A stretch of 64,000 bases of DNA, from the NCBI GenBank assembly GCA_012861695.1, contig JAAOOA010000052.1, positions 214,001 through 278,000 on the forward strand, in the 5' to 3' direction. The notes under the pieces are model-generated. The model saw only the letters and a list, made by a program, of their open reading frames with translations. It was not told the origin of the DNA and searched no databases. Source of the DNA: Trematomus loennbergii (Eukaryota; Chordata; Actinopteri; Perciformes; Nototheniidae). Shown piece by piece: positions 20,563-63,664 of this stretch; position 1 is the stretch's first letter; each line of letters begins with the position of its first letter. A program made the translations under genes and the position numbers.

Positions 20563-20616
<54 letters not shown>

Positions 20617-21065: not shown

Positions 21066-21451
21066 AGACCTAGCTTTTGTGTTTTATGAGTTTTTTTTTT
21101 ATCCCAATTGTTATTGTAATTATCAAAAATACTTACAGATTTATTTTCTGACGATGGAATAATTCAGGGTTCTTACAAGTCAAATTCAAGCACTTTTCAA
21201 GCATTTTCAAGGTGCATTTCAAGCTTATCAAGCATCTTACAGCTGTTGTAAATTACATATTTATATACACATACTTATCCTCAAATGATTATTTCCCTAC
21301 CTCACATTAAATCAGATGTTCTTTATGCTATAAACAACCAAATGTGGTTTCGTGATAGCATTCTACATGAGGATGATCAATTAAAGAAAAAGAAAACAAA
21401 GTGTAATATTTCAAAATGAGTGACCCATCTGTAAGTAGACTGGGCATCCCA

Positions 21452-21862
21452 TATAGAGAGCCGCAGTGACGCGTCCTAAAACCGGAAGTAAACTTTCGAC
21501 AAAAACGCAATGCAATTTCTCCATAGGATTTAGGAAAATAGCTGGAAATAAGGTCTGTGGTTGAGACACATTTAAGAGACGGGTCACGTTTTGTTCTGCC
21601 GGATAATCTCCACTTCTCTTATAATTTTCTAATCATAAATCTATCGATCATAAATCTATCGATTCGATTTATGAAAAGTAGGGTAGACATGTGGATATTA
21701 TCCGGCTGAACAAAACGTGATCCGTCTCTTCAATGTGTCTCAACCACACCTTATTTCGAGCTATTTTCCTAAATCCTATGGAGAAACTGCATTGCGTTTT
21801 TGTCGAAGGAACCGGAAGAAGTTTACCTCGGGTTTTAGGACGCGTCACTGCGGTTCTCTATA
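21452..21862. mobile_element. Palindromic foldback MITE, copy 1
   Basis: The whole 411-bp element is one imperfect palindrome from TATAGAGAGCCGCAGTGACG to its complement CGTCACTGCGGTTCTCTATA, centred near ATAAATCTATCGAT. TA-type flanks are present. Copy 2 is at 62409-62832, and a half-copy lies at about 43130-43340 inside the ERV-resident hAT. Confidence 0.75.
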
Positions 21863-23031
21863 ACCTGGCTGAGCCAATATACAACAATCCGCCATATAAC
21901 TTTTCAATACATTCTTTATTAACATGTTTCAGGTCCTTAGGTTGGCAGTAAACATAAGGCTCTCCCAGGTTAGGCCAAAGGGTGCATTATATGCACACAT
22001 ATACTGTATCAACTCAAAGGTGAATTTTCCTTCACATTGAATCAGCAATCAGAAATTATGCAAATCAAATCAACTTTCAATCAGTCTTTGAGCTCCTTGA
22101 GTTGAAAAAGCAAACAGAAAACCTGCACAGAACACTGCACTGAATCATTCAAGGTAAGGCTAAACAGCATACGGCCTGTTAGGGAGTGTCTTTCAGTTCC
22201 TTGAGTTTGTCCGTTAGCTGTCTCTCCAAAGTCTCCAGATGTCTTTCCTTTTCCTTAGCAGCTCTTCCAAGGCCATTGGGCTTGGAGATGAAGCTTAGTT
22301 TTCTTTTATGCAACTGTGTACTACTTCTACTCCACTACAATTCAGAGGTAAAGGTGTACTTTGACTCCACTACATGTATTTCCCTTTAGTTACTTTACAG
22401 ATGTGGATGAATGATGTGAAATATAATCAAGTGTTAAATCAGACTTTAGTTCCACCTGGAGTAAATTCACAAGCTACCCTGCAGTATACAAAGTCATTCA
22501 AACTAGCTGCACCTTTACCAGCTTTGAGAACACTTTAATGATCAATCATTATAAAACATATCATATATATTATTCTGAAATGGAGCCTCAGTGACCTTTG
22601 AGATATCACCCTCTTTCAATCCCAAGAAAACATTCCTCCTCAAAGACACATTCACCTCCGACAGACTTTCACTTGTGGACTAGAGTTATCCTGTGGATAT
22701 GGAATGGAGGCAATCATCTTCAAAAGGGGAAAATATTAATATGTCTCAGATGATCAAGGAACAAGACCAACTGTTGCTAAAAATTTGAATACACTGACTA
22801 TAAAACAAAAGATCTGGATTATGAAATAGACCCGGACAATAATTTCTTCTCTTCTATCATCAACAACTGCTGTTATTACACTGATCAACAGTACAACCAG
22901 AGCATATCATCAGAGGGCAAGCTATCTATTATTCACTTCAACAGCAGAAGCATGTATGCAAACTTTAATCTCATCAAGGAATATTTAAATCAGTTTTAAC
23001 AAACATTTAGCATCATTGCCATATCTGAAAC

Positions 23032-27628: not shown

Positions 27629-28859
27629 TGTAGAGTCAGGAGGACTGATAATTTATTCCGGCAAATTACTCAGACCTACTAATTAACCTAACCGAAGTTA
27701 TTGAGTCTATGTAAGTTTGCTGCTTGGCTCAGATCCACCAACGTCAGCAAGATCTCACCTCTATTAACTCCCTGAAGAACCAGGTTCAATGAACTGCTGT
27801 TTCAATTCAGACGACCCTCTTAATCTGTTTAAGCGATCCCGAAGGATTTTGATATCAGTAAATGAGGTGTGGCCCTATACTCAGTGTGAGTGTGGCAGTG
27901 TGCAATCTTACCTTTGAAGCAGGAGAGGAGAGCGCTGATGTCTTTTAAGTTGTCCCAATCCAAAAGGTGGGATCAGTTTATTTGAAGAAAAATAGGTCCA
28001 AACTTATACAGGGTTTTTACCTTCTCTCGTTACAACATTATAATCATACTAAACATATCATGCTGGGGTTATTTTCTAATCTAAAACCTTAATTCATAGT
28101 TCACACATTAAAGTCTTCTGACAAAATCCAAAAGGAATTTCTTCACAGATTGACGGGGTTAACATCCACACACTATGGCCTGACACATTTAAGTGGTTTT
28201 GCTCCTCAGAATGATCAGATAGAAATCCTAAGTTTAAAAACGTTCATCCATCCATTCACTCAGCATTCAATACACAGAGATTCAAGCAATAGTTACCAAG
28301 TTTGAGAGAACCTTACCGAGAGCAAAAACCCAGCTCTGAAGCTGTTTCTCTCTCACCCAGTGTTTTAAAGCTCAAAACAGGATATAACAACCCAAAGACA
28401 CCTCCTCCATACCCATATTTGTGGAAACTGGGCATGGCCTCTGATGTACAGGACTGGACATGACCAGACATATGCTATGGCATAAGACACACCTTCCCAT
28501 GTTTGTGTAAAAAGGACATGACCCCTACTCTGCAGGACTTGCAAAATATTATTCTCGGCTATGACATAACCACCTTTTTGGGGCCTCAATGTATTTCTCC
28601 TTAAGTCAGGAGCCCCCCTCCCTGTGTACTGCTGTGAGGGGAGAGAGAAGAAACTGCCTCTCCTCTTATCAGTGACAACCATAAACCATTATAGGCCTTA
28701 CACACTCAACTTAACAAACCACTTTGTTTATACTGTAAATATAGAAAATCATAAAATATGATGCATTTTCATTGTGGGTTATACAAGAATATAATTGATT
28801 ATACTTGATTATAATTAACTTTCGTTTGAAGTATTCATCCTAATATGGAGATCTCAACA
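27629..28859 (-). mobile_element. Solo LTR of the macrodomain ERV family, antisense
   Basis: Read on the minus strand it begins TGTTGAGATCTCC and ends in ...CTACA, and it is collinear with the 5' LTR at 39850-41260. It is about 180 bp shorter, partly because it lacks the poly-G tract. No internal retroviral sequence adjoins it, so it is a solo LTR left by LTR-LTR recombination. Its flanks do not show a simple 4-bp duplication but an imperfect direct repeat of about 91 bp. Confidence 0.85.
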
Positions 28860-33514: not shown

Positions 33515-35322
33515 CCTTCCTGCAGTTCCTCACAGCTGGAATCAGTCTCCGTTTCCCCTCCTCTGATGTTTTGTACTGACTCAGGTCCAACTCATCCAGA
33601 ACCTCCTCTGACATCTGCAGCATGTAGGCCAGAGCAGAGCAGTGGATCTCAGAGAGTTCCTTCTCTGATCTGTTCTCTGACTTCAGGAACTCTGTGATCT
33701 CCTGATGTACTGAGTGGTCCTTCATCTCTGTCAGACAGTGGAAGATGTTGATGCTCCTGTCAGGAGAGATTTCATCACTGCTCATCTCCTTCAGGTTGCT
33801 GATGGCTCTCTGGATGGTTTCTGGACTGTTGTCTGTGCGACCCAGCAGGCCTCCTAAGAGTCTCTGGTTGGACTCCAGAGAGAGGCCGTGGAGAAAGCGG
33901 ACAAACAGGTCCAGGTGGCCATTTTCACTTCTGAGGGATTTCTCCATGGCTCCCTTTAGGAAGACATCCAGGGATGGGTAATCCTGATCACTGTTTTTAC
34001 TGTTCTCATAGTCCCAGTCTCCCTGCAGGAAGTCCTTCAGTACCTCTGTGTTCTGTTGGTGTAACAGTGCAACATGTAGACTGCAGCCAGAAACTCCTGA
34101 ATGCTCAGATGAACAAAGCAGTAGACTGTTTTCTGGAAGATCACTCTCTCTCTTTTGAAGATCTCTGTACAAACTCCTGAATGCACCAAGGCCTCGGTGA
34201 CACCAAGACCACAGCGCTGCAGGTCTTCTTGGTAGAACATGATGTCTCCTTTCTCCAGATGTTCAAACGCCAGCCTCCCCAGCTTCAGAAGAAGCTCCCT
34301 GTCAGCCTCCGTCAGCTGCTGTGGACTCGTCTCATGTCCCTCTTCATACTTCTGCTTCTTCCTCTTGGTCTGGACCAGCAGGAAGTGTGAGTACATGTCA
34401 GTGAGGGTCTGGGGCAGCTCTCCTCTCTGGTCTGTAGTCAACATGTGGTCCAGAACTGCAGCAGTGATCCAGCAGAAGACTGGGATCTGACACATGATGT
34501 GGAGGCTCCTGGAGCTCTTGATGTGAGAGATGATTCTGCTGGACAGGTCTTCATCACTCGATCTCCTCCTGAAGTACTCCTCCTTCTGGGCGTCAGTGAA
34601 GCCTCGTACTTCTGTTACCCTGTCCACACACTCAGGAGGGATCTGATTGGCCGCTGCAGGTCTGGAAGTTATCCAGACGAGAGCCGAGGGAAGCAGCTTC
34701 CCCCTGATGAGGTTTGTCAGCAGCACGTTGACTGAGGACTTCTGTGAGACATCAGACACAACCTCATTGTTTCTGAAGTCCAGAGAAAGTCTGCTTTCAT
34801 CCAGGCCGTCAAAGATGAGCAGCACTTTGCAGACAGCCAGCTGCTCTGCTGTGACCTTCTGTAAGGTTGGATGGAAAACATGGAGCAGCCTGAGAAGACT
34901 GTACTGCTCACCTTTGATCAGGTTCATCTCCCTGAAGGAGAGCGGGATCACCAGACTGACATCTTGGTTTCCCAAACCCTCGGCCCAGTCCAGAGTGAAC
35001 TTCTGCACTGAGAAGGTTTTTCCAACTCCAGCGACTCCGTTGGTCAGGACCGCTCTGATGAGAGTCTGTTGGTCAGGTGAGGCTTTAAAGATGTCCTGGC
35101 ACTTGATTGGAGTGTCATGGAGGGTCTCTTTTGGAAGCTGTCTCCAGCTGCCTCACCTCATGTTGGGTATTAACCTCTTCACTCCTGCCTTGTGTGATGT
35201 AGAGCTCAGTGAAGATCCTGTTGAGGAGGGTTTCACTTTGATCAGTTCCTTCAGTCACACGTTCACATCTCCTCCTCAGACTGAGCCTATGTTCATCTAA
35301 AACCTCCTGCAGACCACTCTCT
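33515..35322 (-). CDS. NLR gene: FISNA-NACHT exon, two frameshifts
   Basis: This large exon of a fish NLR (NLRC3-like/NLR-C) encodes the FISNA segment ([51 protein letters not shown]). The NACHT ATPase follows: Walker [16 protein letters not shown] near 35020, Walker [14 protein letters not shown] near 34800, and FRGF-like [12 protein letters not shown]. The winged-helix/superhelical region ends [27 protein letters not shown], then NACHT-associated helices to [13 protein letters not shown] acceptor lies near 35323 and a GTAAGT donor follows 33515. One-base frame changes occur near 35110 (A run) and near 34055, so as assembled it cannot encode one protein. The product would be a cytosolic sensor that oligomerises through NACHT. 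Confidence 0.92.
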
Positions 35323-35512
35323 GCTGGAAGAGAAGGAAACAGAGAGAATCAGAAAATGCTTTTGAGAATATAACAATAAAACTAATAAAAACAGACTGAG
35401 TTTAAATGTTTTATAAACATTTTAATGTCTATGTTCTTCAACAGAATACCTAATAAACAAAACAAATGAACCAGGAAGAGGAATAAGACGCTGCATGAGT
35501 TCGGCCTCTTAC

Positions 35513-35748
35513 CTCGTACAGAGCTGGTCTGACTGGCTGTCTGCAGGCCAGCTCTGGTTCTGGATCTTTCTCCACACTGGGGACAGCAGGGGTCTCCTGA
35601 TGGAGGGCGCTGCTCCCAGTATGAGGTGATGCACTGTCTGCAGAACCAGTGTCCACAGCTGGTAGAGACTGGATCCTTCAGGACGTCCTGACACAGAGCA
35701 CAGCTGGACAGCTGCTCCTCCACAGGAACACCACTCTTCCTCTTCCCT
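35513..35748 (-). CDS. NLR gene: RING-finger exon
   Basis: A CTCCACAG acceptor precedes 35748 and a GTAAGAGG donor lies at 35505-35512. The open frame contains KSGVPVEEQLSSCALCQDVL, KDPVSTSCGHWFCRQCITSY, and PCCPQCGERSRT. The Cys/His spacing (C-x2-C, C-x-H-x2-C-x2-C, C-x2-C) is a C3HC4 RING, as in TRIM-type E3 ligases. A RING-like exon before FISNA-NACHT is a known arrangement in some fish NLR subgroups. It suggests ubiquitin-ligase activity joined to an NLR sensor, but this is inferred. The exon has no frameshift. Confidence 0.85.
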
Positions 35749-36001
35749 CTGTGGAGAGGAACACATCCTTTATAGCACTTTACTTCAGAGGGCTGATTCT
35801 CACCAAAGGTACAACAAGGGGGCACATTCTAGTTTGATATTTAAAAAAAGGTCTATATAATATATACCCTTGTGATCAGGTATAGCTTACAATTCACATG
35901 ATCATAAAACCAGAGAGCATCCTGTCTGGATTCATCACCCAGAGGAGCACATGTTCCCTGTATCTACACACACATTATATTTTATATATATATATATATA
36001 C

Positions 36002-39815: not shown

Positions 39816-39849
39816 TCTTCCTCTTCTTTTAATCACTCATCTTCTCCAG

Positions 39850-40384
39850 TGTTGAGATCTCCAAATCAGGTTGAATACTTAAAACGAAAGTTAGTTATAA
39901 TCAAATATAATCAATTATATTCTTGTATAACCCACAATGAAAATGCTTCATATTTTGATTTTCTATATTTACAGTATAAACAAAACACAAGTGGTTTGTT
40001 AAGTTGAGTGTAAGGCCTATAATGGTTTATGGTTGTCACTGTTAAGAGGAGAGGCAGTTTCTTCCCTCTCCCCTCACAGCAGTACACAGGGAGGGGGGCT
40101 CCTGACTTAAGGAGAAATACATTGAGGCCCCAAAAAGGTGGTTATGTCATAGCCGAGAATAATATTTTGCAAGTCCTGCAGAGTAGGGGTCATGTCCTTT
40201 TTACACAAACATGGGAATGTGTCTTATGCCATAGCATATGTCTGGTCATGTCCAGTCCTGTACATCAGAGGCCATGCCCAGTTTCCACAAATATGGGTAT
40301 GGAGGAGGTGTCTATCCTGTTTTCGAGCATAAAGACACTGGCAGATGGGGAGGAATTATTTATTTTTTTGGAGGGAGAGAGAGA

Positions 40385-40418
<34 letters not shown>

Positions 40419-41260
40419 CTCTCTCCCGGTAAAGCTCTCTTCCTTCAGAGCTGGGTTTTACTCTCGGTAAGGTTAACTGGGTAACTATTGCTTGAATCTC
40501 TGTGTATTGAATGCTGAGTGAATGGATGGATGAAAGTTTTTAAACTTAGGATTTCTAACTGATCATTCTGAGGAGCAAAACCACTTAAATGTGTCAGGCT
40601 ATAGGCTGTGAATGTTAGAACCTTCGATCCACGAGGAGATCCCTCTGGGTTTCTGTCAGAATTCAATCTGAACATTCTGAGGAACTGACCTCTTACATGT
40701 GTCAGGCCATAGTGTGTGGATGTTAACCCCGTCGATCTGTGAGGAAATTCCTTTTGGATTTTGTCGGGAGACTTTAATGGGTGAACTATGAATTAAGGTT
40801 TTAGATTAGAAAAATAACCCCAGCATGATATGTTTAGTATGATTATATGTTGTAACGAGAGAAGGTAAAAACCCTGTATAAGTTTGGACCTATTTTTCTT
40901 CAAATAAACTGATCCCACCTTTTGGATTGGGACAACTTAAAAGACATCAGCGCTCTCCTCTCCTGCTTCAAAGGTAAGATTGCACACTGCCACACTCACA
41001 CTTAGTATAGGGCCACACCTCATTTACTGATATCAAAATCCTTCGGGATCGCTTAAACAGATTTAGGGGGTCGTCTGAATTGAAACAGCAGTTAATTGAA
41101 CCTGGTTCTTCGGGGAGTTAATAGAGGTGAGATCTTGCTGATCGTTGGTGGATCTGAGCCAAGCAGTAAACTTACATAGACTCAATAACTTCGGTTAGGT
41201 TAATTAGGAGGTCTGAATAATTTGCCGGAATAAATTATCAGATGACTCCCGACTCTTACA
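39850..41260 (+). mobile_element. 5' LTR of the ERV
   Basis: It is 1411 bp, from TGTTGAGATCTCC to GACTCTTACA, and collinear with the antisense solo LTR 27629-28859. The 3' fragment at 51474-51764 matches its last 290 bp. A 32-base G run (40387-40418) lies in it and is missing from the solo copy. AATAAACTGATCCC near 40911 could be the polyadenylation signal. AAAGGTAAGA at 40970 resembles a splice donor. Confidence 0.88.
40387..40418 (+). repeat. 32-base G run in the LTR
   Basis: A G homopolymer following a GAGAGAGAG stretch. The solo LTR has no such tract at the matching place, so it expanded after the two copies split, or is an assembly artefact. Confidence 0.9.
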
Positions 41261-41278
41261 TGACGCCCAACGTGGGGC
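41261..41278 (+). other. Primer-binding site, tRNA-Lys type
   Basis: TGACGCCCAACGTGGGGC follows the LTR directly. It differs at one base from the 3' end complement used with tRNA-Lys(CUU) primers (TGG at the start in place of TGA). The contact with the CA of the LTR is exact, which confirms the LTR boundary. The primer assignment is from memory. Confidence 0.75.
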
Positions 41279-41937
41279 TCTGTGAGAAGTTATACTTCTA
41301 CAGAGTTAAAATACAAGAACCAAAACGGCCTAGTGACAACGGTCGATGAGCACAAATCAGCAAAATACAGGCTGAAAGTCTTGTTAAAATACCTACCCAA
41401 ATCCTAGAATATATATTTAAACCTAAAAGTGTAGTAATTAAAGTTGATACTATTGCACCGGACTGAGGGTTATATTATATCGGATATTGCTGTCTGTTAA
41501 AGAAGCTAAAGTAGGCTTTTCTTCCCCTAGCCAAACTGGGAAGCCCCTGTGGTCCCTAATGCACAGGTTTGGTGGCTAGTAGTTATTAGTAAAGTCAGCC
41601 GTAGGAGCACTGCTCAGTACCTGTCCAATTACTTTGAAACGTACAGGTAGGACTTGACAAAGAGCTGCGGTTAGAATTTTTGCGTTAAAACATAACGTGG
41701 TGAAGAGTTAATAGGATATTTAATAAAGATAAACCATAGGTCTAAAAGGGTTCCTTGGCTGTTGGAAAAGCTCGAAGCTCGATACATAACCCTCTTAGTT
41801 GAGGTATCCGCATGCACTAGCTGAATCCAGGAGAGTACCTAGAACCAAGTGACGGTATAGTCGGACTGATCCTCCGGTGTGAGTAATAGCCTAGGAACTT
41901 GCATGTGTATAAAAGAGTGAACTTAAACCCTTAAATA
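41279..41937 (+). other. ERV leader region
   Basis: About 660 bp between the primer-binding site and the first long frame. This is where packaging signals would lie. No clear structure was identified by eye, and no other gene is seen. Confidence 0.5.
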
Positions 41938-42540
41938 ATGGCGGATGAGGTTAGAACGCAGTTTTTTAATGACTCAGAGCCAGCCACAGATTGGGAAGGA
42001 TACACAGAAGCTAGATCCGGACCTTCTGCCCCCCCTGGTCAGCTTAGCCCAGACCCACGGGCGTACCGCGACCTAAATACGTTCCTGTTAGACTACCGTT
42101 TAGACAGAGAGCAACAAGCAGGTGGTATAATGTCTGAGACCCTACCTCCACCCTACGGAGATGATAGCTCACAAATGCCACTTATGAGTATCCCATCTAA
42201 TACTCCTAAAAGAAAACACATTGTTAGACCTGATATTCAGGGAAAAGGAATGTTGGAAATGATAATGGCAGATATTGAAAATCTTAAACTGGATCAACCA
42301 ACCATGTTAGTGAACCCTGCTAATATGGAGCTAAAACATGTAGGAGGAATAGCAGCAGCTCTGGCAAAGAGAATAGGTCCTAGCATGCAAGCACAGAGCG
42401 ATAATATGATAAGGACTATTAAACTGACCCCTTTTGGAAATGGGATTTTCCGTTACACAACAGAAGACTCAATTCAGGCCTTAAAGAACGCTTTACAAAC
42501 AAGTCAGGGAGAGTTAAATGTGGTGCTATGTTGCTCATGA
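41938..42540 (+). CDS. ERV Gag-like protein with late-domain motifs and a macrodomain-like region (internal deletion)
   Basis: This 200-codon frame is the first of the ERV. Residues about 28-33 read GPSAPPG and residues about 69-74 read LPPPYGD. PSAP and PPPY are the classic late-domain motifs through which Gag recruits TSG101 and NEDD4-type ligases for budding. From about residue 112 the text reads MIMADIENLKLDQPTMLVNP, then ANMELKHVGGIAAALAKRIG. This fits the ADP-ribose-binding macrodomain pattern (D-I-x..VNPAN..L.H.GG.A.A). Near residue 165, FGNGIFRYTTEDSIQALKNA resembles the macrodomain glycine-rich loop and last helix. Only about 25 residues separate these blocks, fewer than a normal macrodomain has, so a middle piece is probably deleted. 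No capsid or zinc knuckle is visible. The function would be ADP-ribose binding or removal during infection, which is inferred. Confidence 0.72.
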   Translation: MADEVRTQFFNDSEPATDWEGYTEARSGPSAPPGQLSPDPRAYRDLNTFLLDYRLDREQQAGGIMSETLPPPYGDDSSQMPLMSIPSNTPKRKHIVRPDIQGKGMLEMIMADIENLKLDQPTMLVNPANMELKHVGGIAAALAKRIGPSMQAQSDNMIRTIKLTPFGNGIFRYTTEDSIQALKNALQTSQGELNVVLCCS

Positions 42541-43785
42541 GGGAGCTTACACTTTTGGGAAAAGATCTCCCCCTTTCTCTGCTCCTGAGGTGCTGCAGAC
42601 TCACAGCAGCACACAGGGTCAAAGACAGGCATGACCTCTGGAGAGGAAGACAATCTAAATCTGAACAGACCACAGAGCGACCCATTAAAAGGTTTTATGG
42701 CCTCAACACCAGTGGCGTTTTTATATGTACAAAAGTGGTGGGGCACAAAAAACTTAGATGTCTATATATAAGCTTCTGCAGTGACGTGCAGTGAGGTTCA
42801 TGGCTGGTGAGGCACTGGCACTGACTCTTCAGGTTTACAAATCTTATATTTTGACCTAAACCAAAATATAATATTATTTTCAAAAGCTTTTTTTGTCTGA
42901 TGCTTCGATTAATTTTAAACAGACAGTTCAACAAAAGGATACCCAAAAAATGTAATTTGATCATTTAAATATTGAATTGTTCTCTCTTAGTAAGATCCCA
43001 TTTTCAATAAAATGGCAGTCTTACCTTGACTTGAAGATGAAGTCCATTTGCCTATCCTTCTGGACAAACATTTCTATTACTTTTTTGTAAAAGTCCTCCT
43101 TAACTTTTTGTAGTTTCAAAAGTCTATCATAAATCTAATCGATAGATTTATGATTCGAAAATTATAAAAGTAGGGTAGACATGTGGATGTTATCCGGCTG
43201 AACAAAACGTGCATTTATCTAACAGGTACGTTTCCCATAGATCTTATTTCAAGCTATTTTCTAAAATCCTATAGAGAAACCTCATTGCTTTTTTGCAGCT
43301 TACTTCCTGGTTTTAGGACGCGTCACTGCAGCTCTCGTCTCCTCTTATTATACATCCATGCTCTTCACACACCACACTTTTCGCGGCACACGTACTTACA
43401 GCCAATCAGCTCTGAATGATGTGAGATGACGTATGGTGGGGATGGCAGCTCTGTGCCCCTATAGAGTGGCGAAGTCCCTCCCCTTCCGGTTGAGCCCCAT
43501 GGGACCTTATTTCGGAAAAATTATGTATTGAAGTCAATGGAGAGGGAAAGATTATCTTTCGATCCCGTTTGAATTGTGCCACGAATTACACATATGATGT
43601 TTGTCAATTTAAAAGATAATTTTGCAAGTCAAAAAAAAAAAAATGTGTCGTAAACTGTGAAGTAACACATTTGTTTGTGTGAAACGCTCAATGAACTACA
43701 TCTCTGGTCAACAACAACACACGTCACCAAGATGGCCGTCACTACTGTCTTGTCAACAAACGATTGACTATCACCACAATGAAAC

Positions 43786-44127
43786 GTCGGGTTACGTATT
43801 GTAACCCTTGTTATATAAACACAGGCGGAGCCCTCTACTGGACTCTATGGGTACTACCTTATCATGCAAGCATTCACCTACTGAGATTTCTATAGACGTA
43901 GCCGGCCCCGGGGCGGGCTTACCTGAATGCGTGCGCATCTCACTTCCGTATAAAAGGAGGCCTCGCCTCCTGACCACTATCCTACACCACTCTTCAGCGA
44001 GCGGTATAGGACAGACAGTGCCCCCAAGGTAGAGGGCTCCGCCTGTGTTTATATAACAAGGGTTACAATACGTAACCCGACGTTATATCTCTCACAGGCT
44101 CCGCCCTCTACTGGACTCTATGGGTAC
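43786..44127. repeat. DIRS left terminus and internal complementary region
   Basis: 43786-43838 and 44029-44081 are a perfect 53-bp inverted repeat with a 190-bp loop. The adjoining 44082-44127 complements the other end of the element. It templates circle formation in the DIRS life cycle (established model). Confidence 0.9.
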
Positions 44128-44738
44128 AGTGGGCGGAGCCCCGATGTATGCACGCACTGTCGTCCAGCACACCGTTCCACCTCACTGTCCCTGACCGGCT
44201 TTAGCAGCCACTGCGCCTCACTCACCTCTCCCTCGGTTGTAACCGTGGAGAAGTCCGGGCTGCGGCCGATAGAGCACACCCTGACGCGCTTGCCTCGCAA
44301 AAAAGTGTGCTCAAAAATAGTGCTGAGGACTCCCGTGCGTCTGCCCATAGGCAGACAGGGAAAGTCTGCAGCCCTGTATGGGTTCACTATGCACTCTCCC
44401 TCCTGAGTCCCTAAAGAGCACGGGGAGAACGCAAGTGCCCCCTATGTCCCCCCACTCCGCCACTGACCCTGTGCAGAGTGTGTAGGGACAATAGTATGGA
44501 GGGCTCTCCCCCTCCTGCCCCCAGGCAGGCGAGGGGAGCCTTCAGCCCTGTAAGGGCCCAGAGCGCATTACATCACCCCGCGACCCTCCAGGGGTCCGGA
44601 GAAATGTAAGCGCATTTACGTCCGGGGAGGGGGTCAGATGCCCACTGACCCACAGCCCCCCCCCTCCTCACCAGTCCTGTGTTGCCACAGCAAGTACAGA
44701 CGATGAGAAAGAGCCAGACATATCCAAGAGATAAAACT
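44128..44738. other. DIRS 3' non-coding region
   Basis: GC-rich sequence between the recombinase frame and the internal complementary region. Just before it, on the minus strand at about 44725, a frame continuing from the recombinase reads KFYLLDM, the likely site of the catalytic tyrosine. Confidence 0.45.
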
Positions 44739-46032
44739 TTATGAAGGGCCTGGCGTTGACCAAGACGCCGCCGTGCATATATCCTCCACACTCACACCGC
44801 TGAATAAGGCTGTTGATGCAGCCACAGCTCGTGTGGAGTGCGCACGGACCCCCATGGGACAGGCTCTCCCTGCCTGCTTGTAGGCGTGTGCAATGGTTTC
44901 ACAAAGCCAGCCTGCCAGACGTTTCTTGGACAGAGCTTTTCCAGTCACCCCGCCCCCGAAGCACACAAACAGCTGTTCAGTGCGTCTCAGGGTAGCTGTG
45001 CGCTCTACATAATATGCTAATGCGCGCACCGGGCAGAGGAGGTGTAATTTAGCTTCTCTAGCCCCCCCATGGGGTGGAAGACTAAAACCCCCCAACTGAA
45101 TAGCCCTCGACCTGAACTCACTCCTTAGGCTCTTGGGCACAAAGGAGGGGTTCGGTCTGAGTGTCGCCCCACTCTGGTCACCCCGAATCAATAAACAGCT
45201 CGGGTGCACCGACAGAGCGGTTAACTCGGACACTCTTTTGGCTGACGTTAAGGCAAGTAGCAACGCTGTCTTCCACGACAGTGCTTTCAGGGAGGAGAGC
45301 TCAAGAGGCTCAATGGCCCGTGACCAAGGCCTCGAGCACCAGCGGCAGGTCCCACTGTGGGGCGGAGGCGTGCACCACCGGGCGCAGCCTCCTGACCCCC
45401 TGTAAAAACCGCAACATCAGTGGATGAGAGAAGGCTGACCTGCCGTTGAACCCCTCATGACAGGACGAGATGGCTGCTGCATACACCTTCACTGTGGAAT
45501 GAGCAAGCCCTCTGTCCACCAGTAACTGTAAGAAGGATAAAATAGAGCCCAACTCACAAGATAGGGGCTCTATTCCCCGCTCCTCACACCAATGCTGGAA
45601 TCTCAACCACTTCGGCCTGTAACAGGCTGTGGTGGATTCTGCTCTAGCTGCCTGGATAGACTGAATAACGCTGTCAGACAATCCACCCTGTCTCAGCCTG
45701 TCCCTCTCAGGAGCCAAGCCTGAAGAGGACGGCCCAGAGTGGGTAACGCCCCGATTGCACCTGCCTCTTGAGACATCGCCCCCCAGAACTGGGGGATCGC
45801 CCAGGGCTGGCCCACCTTCATCTGTGTCATTTCTGAGTACCACGGAGCCCCGACGCGATCCGGTGCCACCAGAATGACTGCCAGACGTTCTCGCCTCACT
45901 CTCCCCAGGAGAGGGAGAATGAGACGCAGCGGTGGAAAGGCGTATAGCAGCTTTTTTGGCCATGGCTCGTGTGCAAACGCGTCCACCCCCAAAGGCGGGT
46001 CGTCGCTCAGGGCCATGGAAACCACAGGGCAC
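44739..46032 (-). pseudogene. DIRS tyrosine recombinase, frameshifted
   Basis: The N-terminal core-binding part (46032 to 45310) includes LSDSVIQSIQAARAESTTAC, FQHWCEERGIEPLSC and SFLQLLVDRGLAHSTVKVYA. A one-base shift near 45312 leads to the catalytic part (from 45263): LLLALTSAKRVSELTALSVH with the first Arg, then MGVRAHSTRAVAAS with the His-x-x-Arg box. A second shift near 44745 is needed to reach the tyrosine (KFYLL). The enzyme would insert the circular DNA, but as assembled it is broken twice. Confidence 0.85.
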
Positions 46033-46098
46033 AGTGGCTGTTGCGCCGGCTGGCGAACAGGTCCACTTCCGCTCTCCCGAACTGGGCCCAGATCTGCT

Positions 46099-47514
46099 TC
46101 ACCACCTCCGGGTGAAGCGTCCATTCGCCTGGCAGGGGGCCGCCCCTCGACATGAGGTCGGCCCCCTGTTCTCCAGTCCCGGGATATGGAGGGCTCTCAG
46201 AGATAATACCACCTCTGATGCCCATAACCACAGCCTCTCCGCTGTGGCCAACAAGGCGGCGGAGCGGACTCCGCCCTGCCTGTTGATATAAGCCACTGTG
46301 GTGCTGTTGTCGCTCCTGACCAATACATGTCTCCCTTGAATTAGGGGCATGAAATGCTGGAGGACTAACACTACCGCCCGTAGCTCTAGGAGGTTGCTGT
46401 GTCGTGTTTCTGTTAGAGACCAGCGCCCACCTATAGCCCTCTTCAGGCAGGTCCCTCCCCATCCTGTTCTGGATGCGTCCGTGAACACTGTGATGTAGGA
46501 GGTTACCCGCCCCAGTGGAGACCCCCTCCGGAGGCGCCCGGGAGACCCCCAGAACCGGAGGTTGCCCTCCACTGAGGGGGGGATGGTCACCAGCCGCCGT
46601 TTGTGCCTCTTGGGATCCAAACGCAGACTGGAAAACCACCTCTGCAGGCGGCGCATATGCAATAACCCCAACGGGACCACAACGTGAGCAGCCGCCATGA
46701 GACCCAGAGTCTGCATGACAGCTAAAGCTGTCACTGTTGCCCCCTGTTGCAGCCTGTGCACCGCCCTGAGAAGGGACGCACGCCTGTTCTCTGACAGGGT
46801 GGCACGCAGCGCGCCTGCATCGAGCACCCACTCCCAAATACAACGCCTGTTGGTGAGGTATGGGGGTGCTCTTTCTCCAATTGATCGCAAAGCCTAATTT
46901 GGTTAGGTGTGTGATCAATTGTGCTGTGCAACACATTGCCTGTTCCCGGGACCCAGCCATGACTATGAGGTCGTCTATGTAAAAGAAAACTCTCATGCCC
47001 TGGGCGCGCAGCGGTTGAAGCGCTGTGGCCACACATTTGCTGAATGTGCGTGGGGATAGGGAGTAGCCGAACGGGAGTCTGTTGTACTCGTAGGCTATCC
47101 CTTGAAAGGCAAAACGCAGATATTTCCTGTGCTCACAATCTCCACATGAAAATATGCGTCTTTCAGGTCGATGGTGGTGAACCAATCGCCCGGCTGCACT
47201 AGCCCCATTAACTGTTTGATAGTTAACATGCGAAATTTCCTGCGGCAAATGTGAAGATTCAGGCTGCGCAAATCTAGAATAGGTCTGAATTCCCCTGTCT
47301 TCTTGGAAACCAGGAAGTACATGGAATAAAAACCCCTTTCTTTTTGCTGAGGATGCACCACAGACACTGCCTGTTTCTGCACCAAAGCCTGAATCTCTGT
47401 TGAGAGGAAACCCATCTCCTCTTGGGATGATAAAATTACCTCTCGCATGCCTCTGAATGGAGGTGGGACGCTGCAAAACTGGAGTGAATAACCCCGTTTC
47501 AGCGTCCTGTCCAT
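46099..47514 (-). pseudogene. DIRS reverse transcriptase and RNase H, frameshifted
   Basis: The start reads GFYSMYFLVSKKTGEFRPIL, DLRSLNLHICRRKFRML and WFTTIDLKDAYFHVEI (motif A). After a frame change near 47110, YNRLPFGYSLSPRTFSKCVA and VFFYIDDLIVMAGS follow, giving the YIDD catalytic box near 46990. After another change near 46880 the RNase H domain reads TVFTDASRTGWGGTC, LLELRAVVLVLQHF and VLVRSDNSTTVAYINRQGG, with its Asp and Glu residues present. The order RT then RNase H is normal for DIRS. Confidence 0.88.
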
Positions 47515-47689
47515 CCACTCTGACAGTACACAGCTGAGTTTCCATTCCCCATAATATTGAGTTAATGGACAAGCCCTTAGCTGTGGGGCCGCAGCTATAA
47601 AGCTGTGATACTCTCTGGTGACCCGTTCCGCCGCAAAATCCCCCGTGAAAGGAAGATTTGCCCATGGAGGGTCGACACAGAAAGGGCCG

Positions 47690-47945
47690 ATTTTTTATTG
47701 AGGTCCCTGAACACACCGTCGCGCGCTCTTGTGTGAGCGCGCGCTCCACCCTAACGCTGTTCTCATTACCATGGTAACCAGCATTAACCGGAGTTTTTGT
47801 TGACGTATTGTGTTCACCTGAGGTCCCTGAACACACCATGGGCTCTTGAGAGAGCGCGAGCTCCGCCATAATGCAGCTCTTACCACTACGGTAAACTGTA
47901 TTATTAGGAGCCTTTATTCTAGGCGTAGTGTGTTCCCTAACCATA
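47690..47945 (-). repeat. Direct repeats within the DIRS coding strand, 120-bp period
   Basis: GAGGTCCCTGAACACACC occurs at 47700-47717 and 47820-47837, followed by GCTCTTGTGTGAGCGCG or GCTCTTGAGAGAGCGCG. A third partial unit is near 47925. The period is a multiple of three and one long frame runs through it (CSGTS recurring), so it may be a repeated linker upstream of the RT. Confidence 0.6.
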
Positions 47946-48398
47946 ATGCGCCGACTAGCAAGTCCCTGCACCCGCATAGCGCTACTATAGCACTTCCTGC
48001 GGTTTATCTCTCTCATCTGCGCATGCCCACTAGCTATCTCCTTTACAGGAGAAATAACCGGGGTAGCGAGTGGGGAATATGTACAGTCAACAATGTGTGT
48101 GAGTGCAGGATTGTGAAAACACATGACACTCAGACTTGGATACAGATCACCTTTTCTTTATTAGTTTTCCTAATACAAGGGACCTGGGCATTGAACAGGG
48201 AGGAGGTGGGATTCACCCTAGCGTCCTGGGTGGAGAGACCCGATGAGACGCTTCCTCCCTCCGCCAGTCAGCTGCGTTTTGGCGGAGCTCCCCACCCGGC
48301 GGTTCTCTGCTGCTGCTGAGACTGCCGTGGCCGGGCAGCCCGCCCCCGTGAGTGCCGGTACGCTGGCCCCACGGGGCTGGTTGAAGAAGCGGAGGGTG

Positions 48399-49660
48399 CT
48401 ACCGGCACGGGACTTCGTACCGGCGTCTCTCCCTCCGTCTCACCGTTGCACTGCGCTCCGCCGCCCGCGGAGGACGCTGTGACACCTGGGGAGAAGCTAG
48501 CGGCAACATGCGGCTAAGCTGCAGCCTCTCTTCCTCCAGACGGCTGAAACGCTGGGTGACCGAGGCTATAGACCCAAAGAGCCCTTCCGTGGAAACGGGG
48601 GCTCCAAGGAGATCTGCTCGGTCCTTTTTGGGCAGCGCGGTGAGTCCCAGCCACACATGACGAGACGCCACTGTGGCTAAGGACATCACTCGCCCGGCTG
48701 CGGTGGCCACTCCATGGATCAGATTATTCATCTGACCTATGCAGCGGTCCGGATAATCCTCCCCGTCCTGAGACGGGAGAGCGGGGGCGTCTGCTCGAGG
48801 AGTAATCAAGGAGACGCCCAACACACCCAGATTATTCGCCGCAGCCGCCATCTGTGAACCGAGCCTGAATATTTTATCCAAATATTCTAAGGCTTCCCGG
48901 TCCCGCGGCAGCGGGGGCAGAGGTTTCTTCCCCTCCGCCCAACCAGCTGATCGTGGCAACAGATGGGCCGCCAGGCTCTCGTCGAGGGGGGGCACGCCAG
49001 CACACACCGTGTCTGATCGGCCCTGCACCCTGATAATGCCCGACATGGATGCTATGGCGGCCTTCGTCCTCAATGGACGCCGCCATGTCGCCTCCACACA
49101 CTGCCAGATGTCTGGCAACGGGGGCGAGACGAAAGCCGGCTAAGCACCGGGCCGTAAAACCCCTGCCTAAGGCGGCTTACAGGCCTCGGTGGCAGCGGTG
49201 GGGGGAGCGGTAAGCCTACACGCTCCGCTGCCTGGGTCATCACCGCTGGGAAGTCCAGTCGCGCAGACCTGAGTGCTGGGCCCTCCTGGCTGTCGGACCC
49301 GGGGGTGTCGGACAAGGAGATGTCGTCATCCTCCGTGAAGTCGACCACGCGGTCCCTCGGAAGGACGAACTCAAACGGCACGTCCTCCAGGTCGTCCATT
49401 TCCACCACCTCGAGGTCCACATCCTCTTCCTCTCCGTGCACCTGCGGGCCGAACTTCCTCGAGAAGTACTCCGCACGATGCCGGCGGTTTAGCATCGGGA
49501 TCGAGCAGCAGGAAACACAGGCCGGTGTCTGGCCTGCTCCCTGCTCAGCGTGATCCTGTCCCAGGCACTGAAAACATTGGCGATGCGGGTCTGCTCCCGC
49601 AATCAGTCCAGGGCACGACGGGCAACTGCGATGCTCCAGGAGTGGCTCCATTTTCAACAA
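48399..49660 (-). pseudogene. DIRS gag-like region, frameshifted
   Basis: The first frame (49660 to 49070) opens MLKMEPLLEHRSCPSCPGLI and has a Cys-rich part (CFQCLGQDHAEQ, CVSCCSIP) followed by a long acidic segment. A frame change near 49110 leads to the second part (IASMSGIIRVQGRSDTVC, MAAAANNLGVLGVSLI, MNNLIHGVATAAGRVMSLAT). This is the usual ORF1 of fish DIRS elements, presumed to form particles with the RNA. Confidence 0.75.
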
Positions 49661-51196
49661 TATCTCTCTCTACTTCCTTTCTCCCACTTGTACGTCTCGG
49701 ACTCAGTGCTAGGTTACCACCTCCGCTCGCTGAAGAGTAAAGGATAGTGGTCAGGAGGCGAGGCCTCCTTTTATACGGAAGTGAGATGCGCACGCATTCA
49801 GGTAAGCCCGCCCCGGGGCCGGCTACGTCTATAGAAATCTCAGTAGGTGAATGCTTGCATGATAAGGTAGTACCCATAGAGTCCAGTAGAGGGCGGAGCC
49901 TGTGAGAGATATAACACGTCCTGAAGAATGTCATGCAAAGCTGCCTTCCTTTGATTCTCTCTGAACTGCCTGGTCGTTTTAATGTTTAATGTCAACCATT
50001 TGTGCAGATAGCATGAAGTAGATCGCCGATGCTAACGTTAGCGTTAGCATTTCTCCCCGGAATTAAATGGTGTATTATAGAATGATCACACCGGTGACAG
50101 TACTATTCAAAGGGTTCACGAAATATGACTACTACTCTTACTGTTTAACATTTTGGGTTACTTAATGTTACTTCATGTTAAGGCTAATAAAAATGACAAG
50201 GCTGTAATGCTAACTAACGTGCTAGCTACTAGCTAGGTAGCTAACTTGATCAAGCCACTCCTGGTCGTTTCATCAGACGGGAAGCAAAAGAACGAGCAAG
50301 ACCCATTGCTGGTATAATAAACCTGGTACTAAGCACACAGGCATCTTGTGAAAGTTATCTTATCTTAGCCAGCGCCATATAGATAGATTATATCTATATT
50401 GCGCTGATCTTAGGTATCTGAATGGTGGAGGTAAACAATTGTGACATCACTTACGCGACTCTGGGATTTGTAGTCTTTCTAGTTACGTATTTTTCATAGT
50501 CTTATATTTCAACAGTTTTACGACAAACTGTGACTTTTTTGACATGGAAATTATTTTTTAAGATTGACAAACATCATATGTGTAATTCATGGCACAATTC
50601 AAACGGGATCGAAAGATACGTTTTCTCTCCCCATTGACTTCAATGCATAATTTTTCCGAAATAAGGTCCCATTACCCGGAAGTAAGTGGGCGTGACTTCG
50701 CCACTCTATGGTGTTTGTTTTTTGCCACACACATTACATTGAAAAATACTCTGAGCATGCGCAGTGTAGTTTTTACAGTCACCGTTCACTTTGACAGTGA
50801 AAGGGTGGGCATGATCAGGTTTTGTCCCACATGGCTCAAAACGGCACTGTAGACACTAATTAGAAGAACACAGACTAAAACAGCAATGTACAGACGAATC
50901 AGATGATTAAACATGACCTTAAAATATATTTTATATTTTTTTAATTTCTTTTTTTGCATCTCTTTCCATTTTTTGTAATCATTATGTGTAATACTTTCTG
51001 CTGACAATAGGTGGGGCACCTGCCCCTAATGACTAGTCGCCACTGCTCAACACAAAGAGGAAGATCTGGAGATTGTAAGGAACTCTCCCAAACCAGGCTA
51101 GCCACCCCCACCCCATCACAAGGGGAAGAGTGTTCCTCTCACCAATGAATAAATCATCTCTTAACCAAGTCAGATTTCAAATAGCCATAGCTCCAG

Positions 51197-51478
51197 TTGT
51201 TAAGAAAAGAGGGAGATTCAAAAGTTATCCTTTTATTACAAAGGGAAACGATGAAACCCTTACAGAAAACCTCTGCTCCCAAAATAACTCTGTTTACAGA
51301 CGGGAGTCTGCGAAAAGGTGACCAAGCAGCCGGGTACAGCACAGTTGAGGGTCTTCTTTTTGCTAAAAAACGTAAAATAACACACATCCGTTTTGTTACT
51401 GATAGTGATTGTTGTTACAAAGCAGGTAAAGAAGAGCTTGATTATTGGGAACAAAGGCAGTTTACCAATGTGAAAGGT
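51197..51478 (+). pseudogene. ERV RNase H fragment running into 3' LTR
   Basis: The frame reads APKITLFTDGSLRKGDQAAG (the first catalytic Asp in TDGS), then THIRFVTDSDCCYKAGKEEL (a later Asp in TDSD), then DYWEQRQFTNVKG. This is the N-terminal and middle part of a retroviral RNase H. At 51473 the text passes directly into LTR sequence (AAAGGTAAGATTGCAC), so the rest of pol, env and the first 1.1 kb of the 3' LTR are lost. Confidence 0.75.
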
Positions 51479-51764
51479 AAGATTGCACACTGCCACACTC
51501 ACACTTAGGTAGGGCCACACCTCATTTACTGATATCAAAATCCTTCGGGATCGCTTAAACAGATTTAGGGGGTCGTCTGAATTGAAACAGCAGTTAATTG
51601 AACCTGGTTCTTCGGGGAGTTAATAGAAGTGAGATCTTGCTGATCGTTGGTGGATCTGAGCCAAGCCTCAAACTTACATAGACTCAATAACTTCGGTTAG
51701 GTAATTAGGAGGTCTGAATAATTTAAGTTCGGAATAAATTATCGGATGACTCCCGACTCTTACA
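51474..51764 (+). mobile_element. 3' LTR fragment of the ERV
   Basis: It matches the last 290 bp of the 5' LTR (40971-41260) with a few differences, and ends CTCTTACA before the CCAG duplication. The start coincides with AAAGGTAAG in the 5' LTR, a splice-donor-like sequence. Confidence 0.85.
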
Positions 51765-51786
51765 CCAGTCTGAGAGATAAACCAGT

Positions 51787-54719: not shown

Positions 54720-55735
54720 ATGGCAAAAGTACACACATCCTTTACTCAAGTAGAAGTACAGATACTCAAGTTTAAATATACTCTGGTAAAAGTAGAAGTA
54801 CTGACTAAACTTCTTTACTCAAGTAAAAGTAAAGAGGGCTTTGAAATGTACTTCAGTAAAAAGTACCCATAACTAGCAGCTGTTTTAAAGAGTACCTGAC
54901 CTCCCTTTATATTAATAGAACAATAATGTCATTGTTAGCTAATGAATGTTTCCATGCTGAACAACGGCAACATGACAACGTTTTCATTGGTCCCTCTTCT
55001 TTAGAGAAGACCAGGAAATGATGGATACACGGATCGTGTTCAAATCAATAGGCACGCAATGACTCTAAATAATAATGATCACGCCACCAAACACACATTC
55101 AAACTAAAGGAACCAGCCTGTTTGGGAAATGTAAGAAGTAGAAAGTACAGGTATTTGTGTTCAACATGTAAGAAGTAGAAAGTACAGGTATTTGTGTTCA
55201 ACATGTAAGAAGTAGAAAGTCCAGGTATTTGGGTTCAAAATGTAAGAAGTAGAAAGTACAGGTATTTGTGTTCAACATGTAAGAAGTAGAAAGTACAGGT
55301 ATTTGTGTTCAACATGTAAGAAGTAGAAAGTACAGGTATTTGTGTTCAAAATGTAAGAAGTAGAAAGTACAGGTATTTGTGTTCAAAATGTAAGAAGTAG
55401 AAAGTACAGGTATTTGTGTTCAAAATGTAAGAAGTAGAAAGTACAGGTATTTGTGTTCAAAATGTAAGAAGTAGAAAGTACAGGTATTTGTGTTCAAAAT
55501 GTAAGAAGTAGAAAGTACAGGTATTTGTGTTCAAAATGTAAGAAGTAGAAAGTACAGGTATTTGAGTTAAAAATGTAAGAAGTAGAAAGTACAGGTATTT
55601 GAGTTCAAAATGTAAGAAGTCAAAGTAAAAAGTCGTCAGAAAAATAAGTAGTGGAGTAAAGTACTGATACCAGAAGTATGTACTAAGTACAGTAACTAAG
55701 TATTTGTACTCCACTACTCCATTTACTTTTACATC
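54720..55735. mobile_element. Fish MITE with AAGTA-rich ends and internal minisatellite
   Basis: Sequences such as CTTTACTCAAGTAGAAGTAC at the left and GTAGTGGAGTAAAGTACTG at the right mark a common teleost interspersed repeat. It fills the intron between the last two zbtb11 exons. A related fragment is seen at 22310-22400 and 63290-63370. Confidence 0.5.
55132..55620 (+). repeat. 37-bp minisatellite, about 13 units
   Basis: The unit is AAGAAGTAGAAAGTACAGGT followed by ATTTGTGTTCAAAATGT. Units differ at few positions (CAACATGT or CAAAATGT, one CCAGG, two TGAGTT). It is inside the MITE in the zbtb11 intron. There are no spacers, so it is not a CRISPR-like array. Confidence 0.95.
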
Positions 55736-61166: not shown

Positions 61167-62020
<854 letters not shown>

Positions 62021-62408
62021 AGACCTAGCTTTTGTGTTTTATGAGGTTTTTTTTTTATCCCAATTGTTATTGTAATTATCAAAAATACTTACAGATTTAT
62101 TTTCTGACGATGGAATAATTCAGGGTTCTTACAAGTCAAATTCAAGCACTTTTCAAGCATTTTCAAGGTGCATTTCAAGCTTATCAAGCATCTTACAGCT
62201 GTTGTAAATTACATATTTATATACACATACTTATCCTCAAATGATTATTTCCCTACCTCACATTAAATCAGATGTTCTTTATGCTATAAACAACCAAATG
62301 TGTGTTTCGTGATAGCATTCTACATGAGGATGATAAATTAAAGAAAAAGAAAACAAAGTGTAATATTTCAAAATGAGTGACCCATCTGTAAGTAGACTGG
62401 GCATCCCA

Positions 62409-62832
62409 TATAGAGAACCGCAGTGACGCGTCCTAAAACCCGGAAGTAAACTTCTTCCAGTTCCTTCGACAAAAACGCAATGCAATTTCTCCATAGGATT
62501 TAGGAAAATAGCTGGAAATAAGGTCTGTGGTTGAGACTCATTTAAGAGACGGGTCACGTTTTTTCTGCCGGATAATATCCACATCTCTTATAATGTTCTA
62601 ATCATAAATCTATCGATTAGATTTATGATTAGAACATTATAAAAGTAGGGTAGACATGTGGATATTATCCGGCTGAACAAAACGTGATCCGTCTCTTCAA
62701 TGTGTCTCAACCACAGACCTTATTTCCAGCTATTTTCCTAAATCCTATGGAGAAACTGCATTGCGTTTTTGTCGAAGGAACTGGAAGAAGTTTACTTCCG
62801 GGTTTTAGGACGCGTCACTGTGGTTCTCTATA
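62409..62832. mobile_element. Palindromic foldback MITE, copy 2
   Basis: A 424-bp near-perfect palindrome, more regular than copy 1. Its centre is ATCATAAATCTATCGATTAG with its complement alongside. TA-type flanks. Confidence 0.8.
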
Positions 62833-63664
62833 ACCTGGCTGAGCCAATATACAACAATCCGCCATATAACTTTTCAATACATTCTTTATTAACATGTTTC
62901 AGGTCCTTAGGTTGGCAGTGAACATAAGGCTCTCCCAGGTTAGGCCAAAGGGTGCATTATATGCACACATATACTGTATAAACTCAAATGTGAATTTTCC
63001 TTCACATTGAATCAGCAATCAGAAATTATGCAAATCAAATCAACTTTCAATCAGTCTTTGAGCTCCTTGAGTTGAAAAAGCAAACAGAAAACCTGCACAG
63101 AACACTGCACTGAATCATTCAAGGTAAGGCTAAACAGCATACGGCCTGTTAGGGAGTGTCTTTCAGTTCCTTGAGTTTGTCCGTTAGCTGTCTCTCCAAA
63201 GTCTCCAGATGTCTTTCCTTTTCCTTAGCAGCTCTTCCAAGGCCATTGGGCTTGGAGATGAAGCTTAGTTTTCTTTTTATGCAACTGTGTACTACATCTA
63301 CTCCACTACAGTTCAGAGGTAAAGGTGTACTTTGACTCCACTACATGTATTTAATACCTTTAGTTACTTTACAGATGTGGATGAATGATGTGAAATATAA
63401 TCAAGTGTTAAATCAGACTTTAGTTCCACCTGGAGTAAATTCACAAGCTACCCTGCAGTATACAAAGTCATTCAAACTAGCTGCACCTTTACCAGCTTTG
63501 AGAACACTTTCATGATCAATCATTATAAAACATATCATATATATTATTCTGAAATGGAGCCTCAGTGACCTTTGAGATATAACCCTCTTTCAATCCCAAG
63601 AAAACATTCCTCCTCAAAGACACATTCACCTCCGACAGACTTTCACTTGTGGACTAGAGTTATC

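What the first reader, a model, noticed from the sequence alone, without database searches (positions are those of the whole stretch)
41938..42540. ERV first frame joins Gag late-domain motifs to a macrodomain-like region
Seen: the first long frame after an LTR and a primer-binding site contains PSAP, PPPY, and then MLVNPANMELKHVGGIAAA and FGNGIFRYTTEDSI. The first two are budding motifs; the last two match macrodomain loops that bind ADP-ribose. Established: macrodomains of several RNA viruses remove ADP-ribose and counter interferon-induced PARPs. Fish retroviruses with captured cellular genes have been reported, but I do not know whether a Gag-macrodomain fusion is among them. Inference: this retrovirus family acquired a macrodomain, placed inside or as part of Gag, possibly against host PARP defences. 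The copy here has lost the middle of the domain.
Basis: partly seen in the sequence, partly recalled or inferred. Interest (0 to 1): 0.87.

Follow-up and report, generated by a model that had tools for sequence, protein, structure and literature searches.

The report
Fish foamy-like retrovirus with gag-fused macrodomain
A broken, foamy-virus-like retrovirus in a fish genome carries, in its first gene, part of an ADP-ribose-binding macrodomain like those of the antiviral protein PARP14 and of coronaviruses, which suggests that some fish retroviruses may have built a possible anti-immune enzyme into their structural protein.

Summary
ORF 41938-42540 (200 aa) lies 677 nt after a 1411-bp LTR and contains PSAP, PPPY and a real macrodomain segment: Pfam Macro E 3.7e-5; best PDB relative PARP14, E 6.2e-8; coronavirus nsp3 about 7e-7. 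The last 38 residues match the macrodomain C-terminal third (11.7 bits; 0 of 5000 shuffles, 0 of 1192 window peptides as high). So both ends of one macrodomain sit in order, with about 50-67 model positions missing. The element is a degraded provirus with a CCAG target duplication and a tRNA-Lys-type primer-binding site (recalled reference). A short RNase H-like remnant matches foamy polymerases best (two hits below E 0.01), though Pfam sees no RNase H; I read it as a probable teleost foamy-like ERV. A nested DIRS-like transposon and deletions removed most of gag/pol and env. Gag identity is inferred from position and late-domain motifs; no capsid or matrix domain was found. No relatives could be collected, so family-wide presence and activity are untested. 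A review cites Basta et al. 2009 for macro-domain ORFs in fish retroviruses: a retroviral macrodomain is not new in itself; its place in a foamy-like first gene may be.

The parts
39846..39849 (.). target-site duplication CCAG, left copy
39850..41260 (+). 5' LTR, 1411 bp, TG...CA; TATAAG at 40877 and AATAAA at 40903 among other such words
41261..41278 (+). primer-binding site TGACGCCCAACGTGGGGC, 17 of 18 to the tRNA-Lys1,2 type (reference 18-mer recalled)
41279..41937 (+). leader between PBS and first gene
41938..42540 (+). first gene (gag by position), 200 aa, PSAP/PPPY segment fused to an internally deleted macrodomain
42022..42033 (+). PSAP late-domain motif (residues 29-32)
42145..42156 (+). 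PPPY late-domain motif (residues 70-73)
42253..42411 (+). N-terminal third of the macrodomain (residues 106-158), with NPAN and HVGG motifs
42424..42537 (+). C-terminal piece of the macrodomain (residues 163-200), GIF loop and what follows
42518..42768 (+). downstream coding-like pieces in other phases, broken; 42518-42631 and 42589-42768 have no Pfam match at E<=1, the latter one unrelated PDB chain at E 0.87
43808..49934 (-). nested DIRS-like retrotransposon interrupting the provirus (approximate ends)
51272..51472 (+). RNase H-like remnant of pol, best matched by foamy polymerases
51473..51764 (+). 3' LTR remnant (last 292 bp), 281 of 294 alignment columns identical to the 5' LTR
51765..51768 (.). 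target-site duplication CCAG, right copy
27632..28859 (-). second LTR copy of the same family, apparently a solo LTR

Best explanation
This is the remnant of a teleost, probably foamy-like, endogenous retrovirus whose first gene, gag by position, encodes a proline-rich segment with PSAP and PPPY late-domain motifs joined in frame to a macrodomain of the PARP14-macrodomain-1 / coronavirus-Mac1 type. In intact relatives (inferred) the domain would be made as part of the Gag precursor, be carried in the particle, and bind or remove ADP-ribose put on viral or host proteins by interferon-induced PARPs of the PARP14 kind. This copy is dead: about 50-67 model positions of the domain are missing, the frame closes at 42540, a DIRS-like transposon sits inside, most of gag/pol and env are gone. 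Shown: the fusion in this copy, the macrodomain homology, the provirus boundaries. Inferred: Gag identity, family-wide presence, packaging and enzymatic role.
For: LTR, PBS, TSD and first-frame position. Macrodomain N-terminal third by Pfam, NCBIfam and PDB comparison, C-terminal piece by a separate profile with controls. 23 of 52 aligned residues identical to the PARP14 chain and 23 of 49 to a coronavirus nsp3 chain. NPAN and the H-x-G-G of the catalytic loop are kept; PMC7729036 (passages) describes the last Asn of that motif and that loop as ligand-binding and says HGGG is shared by coronavirus Mac1 and macrodomain 1 of PARP9 and PARP14. Foamy-like pol: of six PDB hits of the RNase H-like remnant at E<=1, the first five (7o24, 7o0g, 2lsn, 7kse, 7ksf) are foamy-virus entries (organisms recalled from the entry codes; the table names Pr125Pol, RNase H and Peptidase A9 or protease/RT/RNase H), best E 4.1e-4. 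Ray-finned-fish foamy-like ERVs have tRNA-Lys PBSs and about 17.4-kb genomes whose ORF-1 was called gag from knowledge of retroviral genome structure (PMC5512871, section 6 read). PARP14 macrodomain 1 is an active hydrolase and coronavirus Mac1 reverses PARP14 ADP-ribosylation (PMC10499325, abstract).
Against: No matrix, capsid or nucleocapsid match in the ORF or in the pieces tested after it. No relative with the same fusion in the collections that answered; these hold viruses and prokaryotes, no fish genomes as far as described, and need near-identical 8-residue words. The copy lacks the middle of the domain, so it cannot itself work as a macrodomain, and the first G of the glycine loop is V (Y in PARP14, G in coronavirus). 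The RNase H evidence is thin: about 70 residues, two hits below E 0.01, the next at 0.05, 0.23 and 0.37; Pfam finds no RNase H in that frame at E<=1 and NCBIfam ribonuclease HI only E 0.095. The C-terminal macrodomain profile is not significant in the six-frame scan (E 0.69). The single-sequence AlphaFold model is uninformative (mean pLDDT 35.9).
Confidence: 0.56

Rival explanations
1. ORF-1 is not Gag but a leader-proximal accessory protein: a macrodomain protein with short motifs that recruit ESCRT and WW-domain ubiquitin ligases, with the real gag lost in the deletions downstream.
For: No Gag domain found in the ORF; the review passage speaks of additional ORFs encoding macro-domain proteins in fish ERVs; fish foamy-like ERVs carry several accessory genes.
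Against: It is the first frame after PBS and leader, where gag lies in retroviruses, and carries two classes of late motif that co-occur in only 38 of 100000 shuffles. The fish accessory genes described in PMC5512871 lie between pol and env or after env.
Confidence: 0.2
2. One-off capture: this copy (or its parent) recombined with a host PARP14-like transcript, so the macrodomain is not a trait of a virus family.
For: Nearest solved relative is a PARP14 chain; only one internal copy is available.
Against: The segment is only about 44% identical to that PARP14 chain over 52 residues (no fish PARP14 was available to compare) and is in frame with late-domain motifs. The LTRs differ at only 8 of 289 ungapped columns, so a capture by this copy alone should have left a host-like sequence.
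Confidence: 0.12
3. The element is one of the epsilon-like fish retroviruses with macro-domain ORFs already reported by Basta et al. 2009, so nothing is new.
For: A review passage attributes macro-domain ORFs to epsilon-like fish sequences (PMC4977317). The original paper was not held. The RNase H evidence for foamy is thin.
Against: The RNase H-like remnant has no gamma- or epsilonretrovirus chain among its six PDB hits at E<=1; the PBS is of the tRNA-Lys type.
Confidence: 0.11

Closest known systems
[quoted passage not shown] AciFLERV, AliFLERV; Aiewsakun and Katzourakis 2017, PMC5512871)
   Same: teleost host, tRNA-Lys-type PBS, foamy-like polymerase remnant (weak here), ORF-1 first, TE insertions and indels
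Macro-domain ORFs of fish epsilon-like retroviruses (Basta et al. 2009, known here only through a passage of PMC4977317)
   Same: a macrodomain encoded by a fish retrovirus
   Different: described there as additional ORFs of epsilon-like elements; here in the first gene of a probably foamy-like element, next to late-domain motifs
Coronavirus nsp3 Mac1 and host PARP14 macrodomain 1
   Same: 23 of 49 and 23 of 52 aligned residues identical; NxxN and HxGG motifs
   Different: those sit in a replicase protein or a host PARP; this one is in a retroviral first gene and lacks its middle in this copy
Megalocytivirus (Iridoviridae) macrodomains of fish viruses (PMC7729036, passages)
   Same: macrodomain in a fish virus
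   Different: a DNA virus, with the catalytic Asp-His dyad shared with eukaryotic MacroD; the domain here has the PARP14/coronavirus-type loop

Membership tests
Macrodomain (PF01661) | N-terminal third with NxxN and glycine catalytic loop | tested here: met
   Pfam E 3.7e-5 above gathering score; PDB E 6.2e-8
Macrodomain (PF01661) | C-terminal loop, helix and last strand | tested here: met
   tail alone 11.7 bits, 0 of 5000 shuffles and 0 of 1192 window 38-mers as high; against: no hit in default Pfam or PDB search and E 0.69 for the whole frame in the six-frame scan
Macrodomain (PF01661) | complete alpha/beta/alpha fold | tested here: not met
   50-67 of 172 model positions absent from the middle; AlphaFold uninformative. 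It is a truncated relative, not a working member
Macrodomain (PF01661) | binds or hydrolyses ADP-ribose | not testable with these tools
   needs a naturally intact relative and an assay
Foamy-like ERV (Spumaretrovirinae-related) | polymerase closest to foamy viruses | tested here: inconclusive
   first 5 of 6 PDB hits at E<=1 are foamy entries (organisms recalled), best E 4.1e-4, two below 0.01; no Pfam RNase H at E<=1; too short for a tree
Foamy-like ERV (Spumaretrovirinae-related) | tRNA-Lys primer-binding site as in ray-finned-fish FLERVs | tested here: met
   17 of 18 to the recalled Lys1,2 18-mer; FLERV PBS type. Other retroviruses use tRNA-Lys too (recalled)
Foamy-like ERV (Spumaretrovirinae-related) | env and bel/acc genes after pol | tested here: not met
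   in this copy the RNase H-like remnant joins the 3' LTR directly at 51473; a deletion, so it does not decide membership of the family
Retroviral Gag | first gene after PBS and leader | tested here: met
Retroviral Gag | late-domain motifs | tested here: met
   PSAP and PPPY; 38 of 100000 shuffles have both classes
Retroviral Gag | matrix, capsid, nucleocapsid or foamy Gag homology | tested here: inconclusive
   no match for the N-terminal part (Pfam none at E<=10; one unrelated PDB chain at E 0.59) or for downstream pieces; a passage of PMC10699275 says that gag of the element DrFV also lacks detectable homology

The most novel reading that the evidence does not exclude
A lineage of teleost foamy-like retroviruses carries a PARP14-type macrodomain inside Gag, so that every particle brings many copies of an ADP-ribose-binding or -hydrolysing module into the cell with the incoming capsid: a virion-borne counter to PARP14-type antiviral ADP-ribosylation, a delivery route for a viral macrodomain that I know of in no other virus (recall).
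Probability: 0.37. Interest if true: 0.82.

Novelty: new variant of a known kind. Interest (0 to 1): 0.61.

Why it matters
Viral macrodomains are listed for Coronaviridae, Togaviridae, rubella virus, hepatitis E virus and some Iridoviridae (PMC7729036, passage), where they are thought to counter PARP defences. A macrodomain inside a retroviral structural gene would mean that the same arms race shaped retroviruses in fish, could account for part of the size of fish foamy-like genomes (17.4 kb), and makes a direct test possible: do naturally intact macrodomains of such elements bind or remove ADP-ribose?

Tried and rejected
Chance resemblance: rejected by E-values and by the tail controls. ERV inserted into a host macrodomain gene: rejected, because the segment lies between the LTRs in one frame with the PSAP/PPPY segment, and no other frame of the window matches the macrodomain profiles at E<=1. 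Macrodomain of the classic MacroD1/2 type: less likely, the loop reads HVGGIAAAL and the best match is a PARP14 chain. AlphaFold of the 200-aa ORF without an alignment: mean pLDDT 35.9, of no use, so no fold search was made. Relatives: none of 3 (IMG/VR), 37 (GTDB contigs) and 19 (IMG/VR, RNase H query) pattern stretches was confirmed, and the degenerate macrodomain pattern had no exact hit in IMG/VR. tblastn of the macro region against phages and plasmids: no match at E<=1. The sigma-70 promoter scan of the LTR is meaningless for a vertebrate LTR and was not used. The piece before the RNase H-like remnant (51079-51318) has no Pfam match at E<=1 and no PDB match at E<=10. No tRNA gene was found in the window to check the PBS against, so the PBS type rests on a recalled 18-mer.

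Full report
What is there. The frame 41938-42540 is 200 codons long and opens 677 nt after the end of a 1411-bp LTR (39850-41260, TG...CA), which is followed by a primer-binding site TGACGCCCAACGTGGGGC, 17 of 18 to the tRNA-Lys1,2 type as I recall it. The last 292 bp of the LTR recur at 51473-51764 (281 of 294 columns identical, 5 gaps), and CCAG flanks the whole on both sides, at 39846-39849 and 51765-51768. So this is a provirus with a target-site duplication, not a loose fragment. With 8 mismatches in 289 columns and the fish rate quoted in PMC5512871 (1.46e-8 per site and year) the insertion is about 1 million years old; the comparison is short, so this is rough.

State of the provirus. 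A DIRS-like retrotransposon lies inside it on the minus strand (about 43808-49934: reverse transcriptase E 2.5e-15, a weak integrase-type SAM domain at E 0.03 below its cut-off, inverted ends 43820-44004 and 49723-49904). After the ORF, coding-like pieces continue in other phases; the two tested have no Pfam match at E<=1 and one has a single unrelated PDB chain at E 0.87. Of pol only an RNase H-like stretch is left (51272-51472), joined straight to the truncated 3' LTR; no env lies between. Another LTR of the family stands on the minus strand at 27632-28859.

What kind of retrovirus. The RNase H-like remnant has six PDB hits at E<=1. The first five (7o24 4.1e-4, 7o0g 0.0027, 2lsn 0.05, 7kse 0.23, 7ksf 0.37) are foamy-virus entries; the organisms are recalled from the entry codes, the table names only the molecules. 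The sixth is an unrelated enzyme at 0.69. Against: Pfam finds no RNase H in that frame at E<=1, and NCBIfam ribonuclease HI reaches only 0.095. With the tRNA-Lys-type PBS this fits the ray-finned-fish foamy-like ERVs of PMC5512871, whose two reconstructed genomes are about 17.4 kb and whose ORF-1 was called gag from knowledge of retroviral genome structure (section 6 read). The host is a teleost by the neighbouring NACHT gene with a weak fish-specific FISNA match (E 0.0044, below its cut-off); this is an inference. The foamy placement is probable, not proved.

The macrodomain. Residues 125-161 match Pfam Macro (E 3.7e-5). In PDB 39 distinct sequences match at E<=1; the best is a PARP14 chain (3vfq, E 6.2e-8, its first macrodomain), then many coronavirus nsp3 chains (about 7e-7); 23 of 52 and 23 of 49 aligned residues are identical. 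The alignments hold NPAN (NASN in PARP14, NAAN in coronavirus) and KHVGG (KHYGG, KHGGG). According to PMC7729036 (passages) the last Asn of NAAN and the glycine loop hold the distal ribose, and the HGGG motif is shared by coronaviruses with macrodomain 1 of PARP9 and PARP14.

The missing middle. The 38 residues from 163 on gave nothing in PDB at E<=10 and no Macro match in Pfam. I therefore built profiles from E. coli YmdB and its relatives in bacteria and viral contigs: a full one from 106 proteins (its 8-sequence seed alignment also reaches PARP14 and PARP9 in PDB), and one of the C-terminal third from 103. The tail scores 11.7 bits against the latter, more than each of 5000 shuffles (4589 reported) and 1192 stop-free 38-mers from the window (1002 reported; best unrelated 6.9). 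The full profile gives ORF-1 21.8 bits and E 1.3e-5 over all window frames, with both pieces in the right order, the only match at E<=1. So the ORF holds the two ends of one macrodomain, without 50-67 of 172 model positions. Whether that gap belongs to this copy or to the family cannot be told without relatives.

Is it Gag? For: first gene, PSAP and PPPY (both classes in 38 of 100000 shuffles). Against or open: the N-terminal part matches nothing (Pfam none at E<=10; one unrelated PDB chain at E 0.59), and no capsid or nucleocapsid was seen. Lack of homology is not unusual here: PMC10699275 (passage) notes that gag of the foamy-like element DrFV has no detectable relatives. I put Gag at about 0.7 and a leader-proximal accessory protein at 0.2.

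How it may work (inferred). In intact relatives a macrodomain within Gag would enter the cell with the capsid and be present again at assembly. PARP14 macrodomain 1 is an active hydrolase, and coronavirus Mac1 reverses PARP14 ADP-ribosylation (PMC10499325, abstract), so the likeliest task is removal or binding of ADP-ribose that PARP14-type enzymes put on viral or antiviral proteins. Nothing here tests this.

Known or new. A review passage (PMC4977317) cites Basta et al. 2009 for CNPase and macro-domain ORFs in epsilon-like fish retroviruses; that paper and Ruboyianes and Worobey 2016 were not held. Exact-term searches: foamy/teleost/macrodomain 0 papers; endogenous retrovirus/macro domain/gag/fish 3; foamy/fish/gag/macro domain 1; macrodomain/endogenous retrovirus/fish/gag 1. 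Looser searches: 20 of 28 listed; 7; 20 of 542; 15 of 61; 7; 12 of 454. In the titles, abstract beginnings and passages that I saw, none reports a Gag-macrodomain fusion. The library lacks most subscription papers and most hits were seen as listings only, so this is weak evidence of novelty. I rate it a new variant of a known kind. On checking, the foamy evidence was found thinner than first written (no Pfam RNase H), so the odds of the main reading were lowered slightly.

Noticed in passing
27632-28859, minus strand: Apparent solo LTR of the same ERV family (95.0% over 600 and 92.7% over 510 alignment columns to the 5' LTR), set between two repeats of about 95 bp and without a clear target-site duplication.
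   Followed up: partly
43808-49934, minus strand: DIRS-like retrotransposon (reverse transcriptase, weak integrase-type SAM domain, inverted ends) nested in the provirus; another pair of inverted repeats at 43461-43658 and 50512-50709 (83%) lies outside it.
   Followed up: partly
34040-35828, minus strand: Fragment of a fish NLR-type gene (NACHT E 3.1e-30, NOD2 winged helix, weak FISNA) beside a RING finger frame, about 4 kb from the ERV.
   Followed up: no
20565-22698 and 61497-63672: Direct repeat of about 2.2 kb, 93% identical.
   Followed up: no
55016-55731: Tandem array with a 37-bp period.
   Followed up: no
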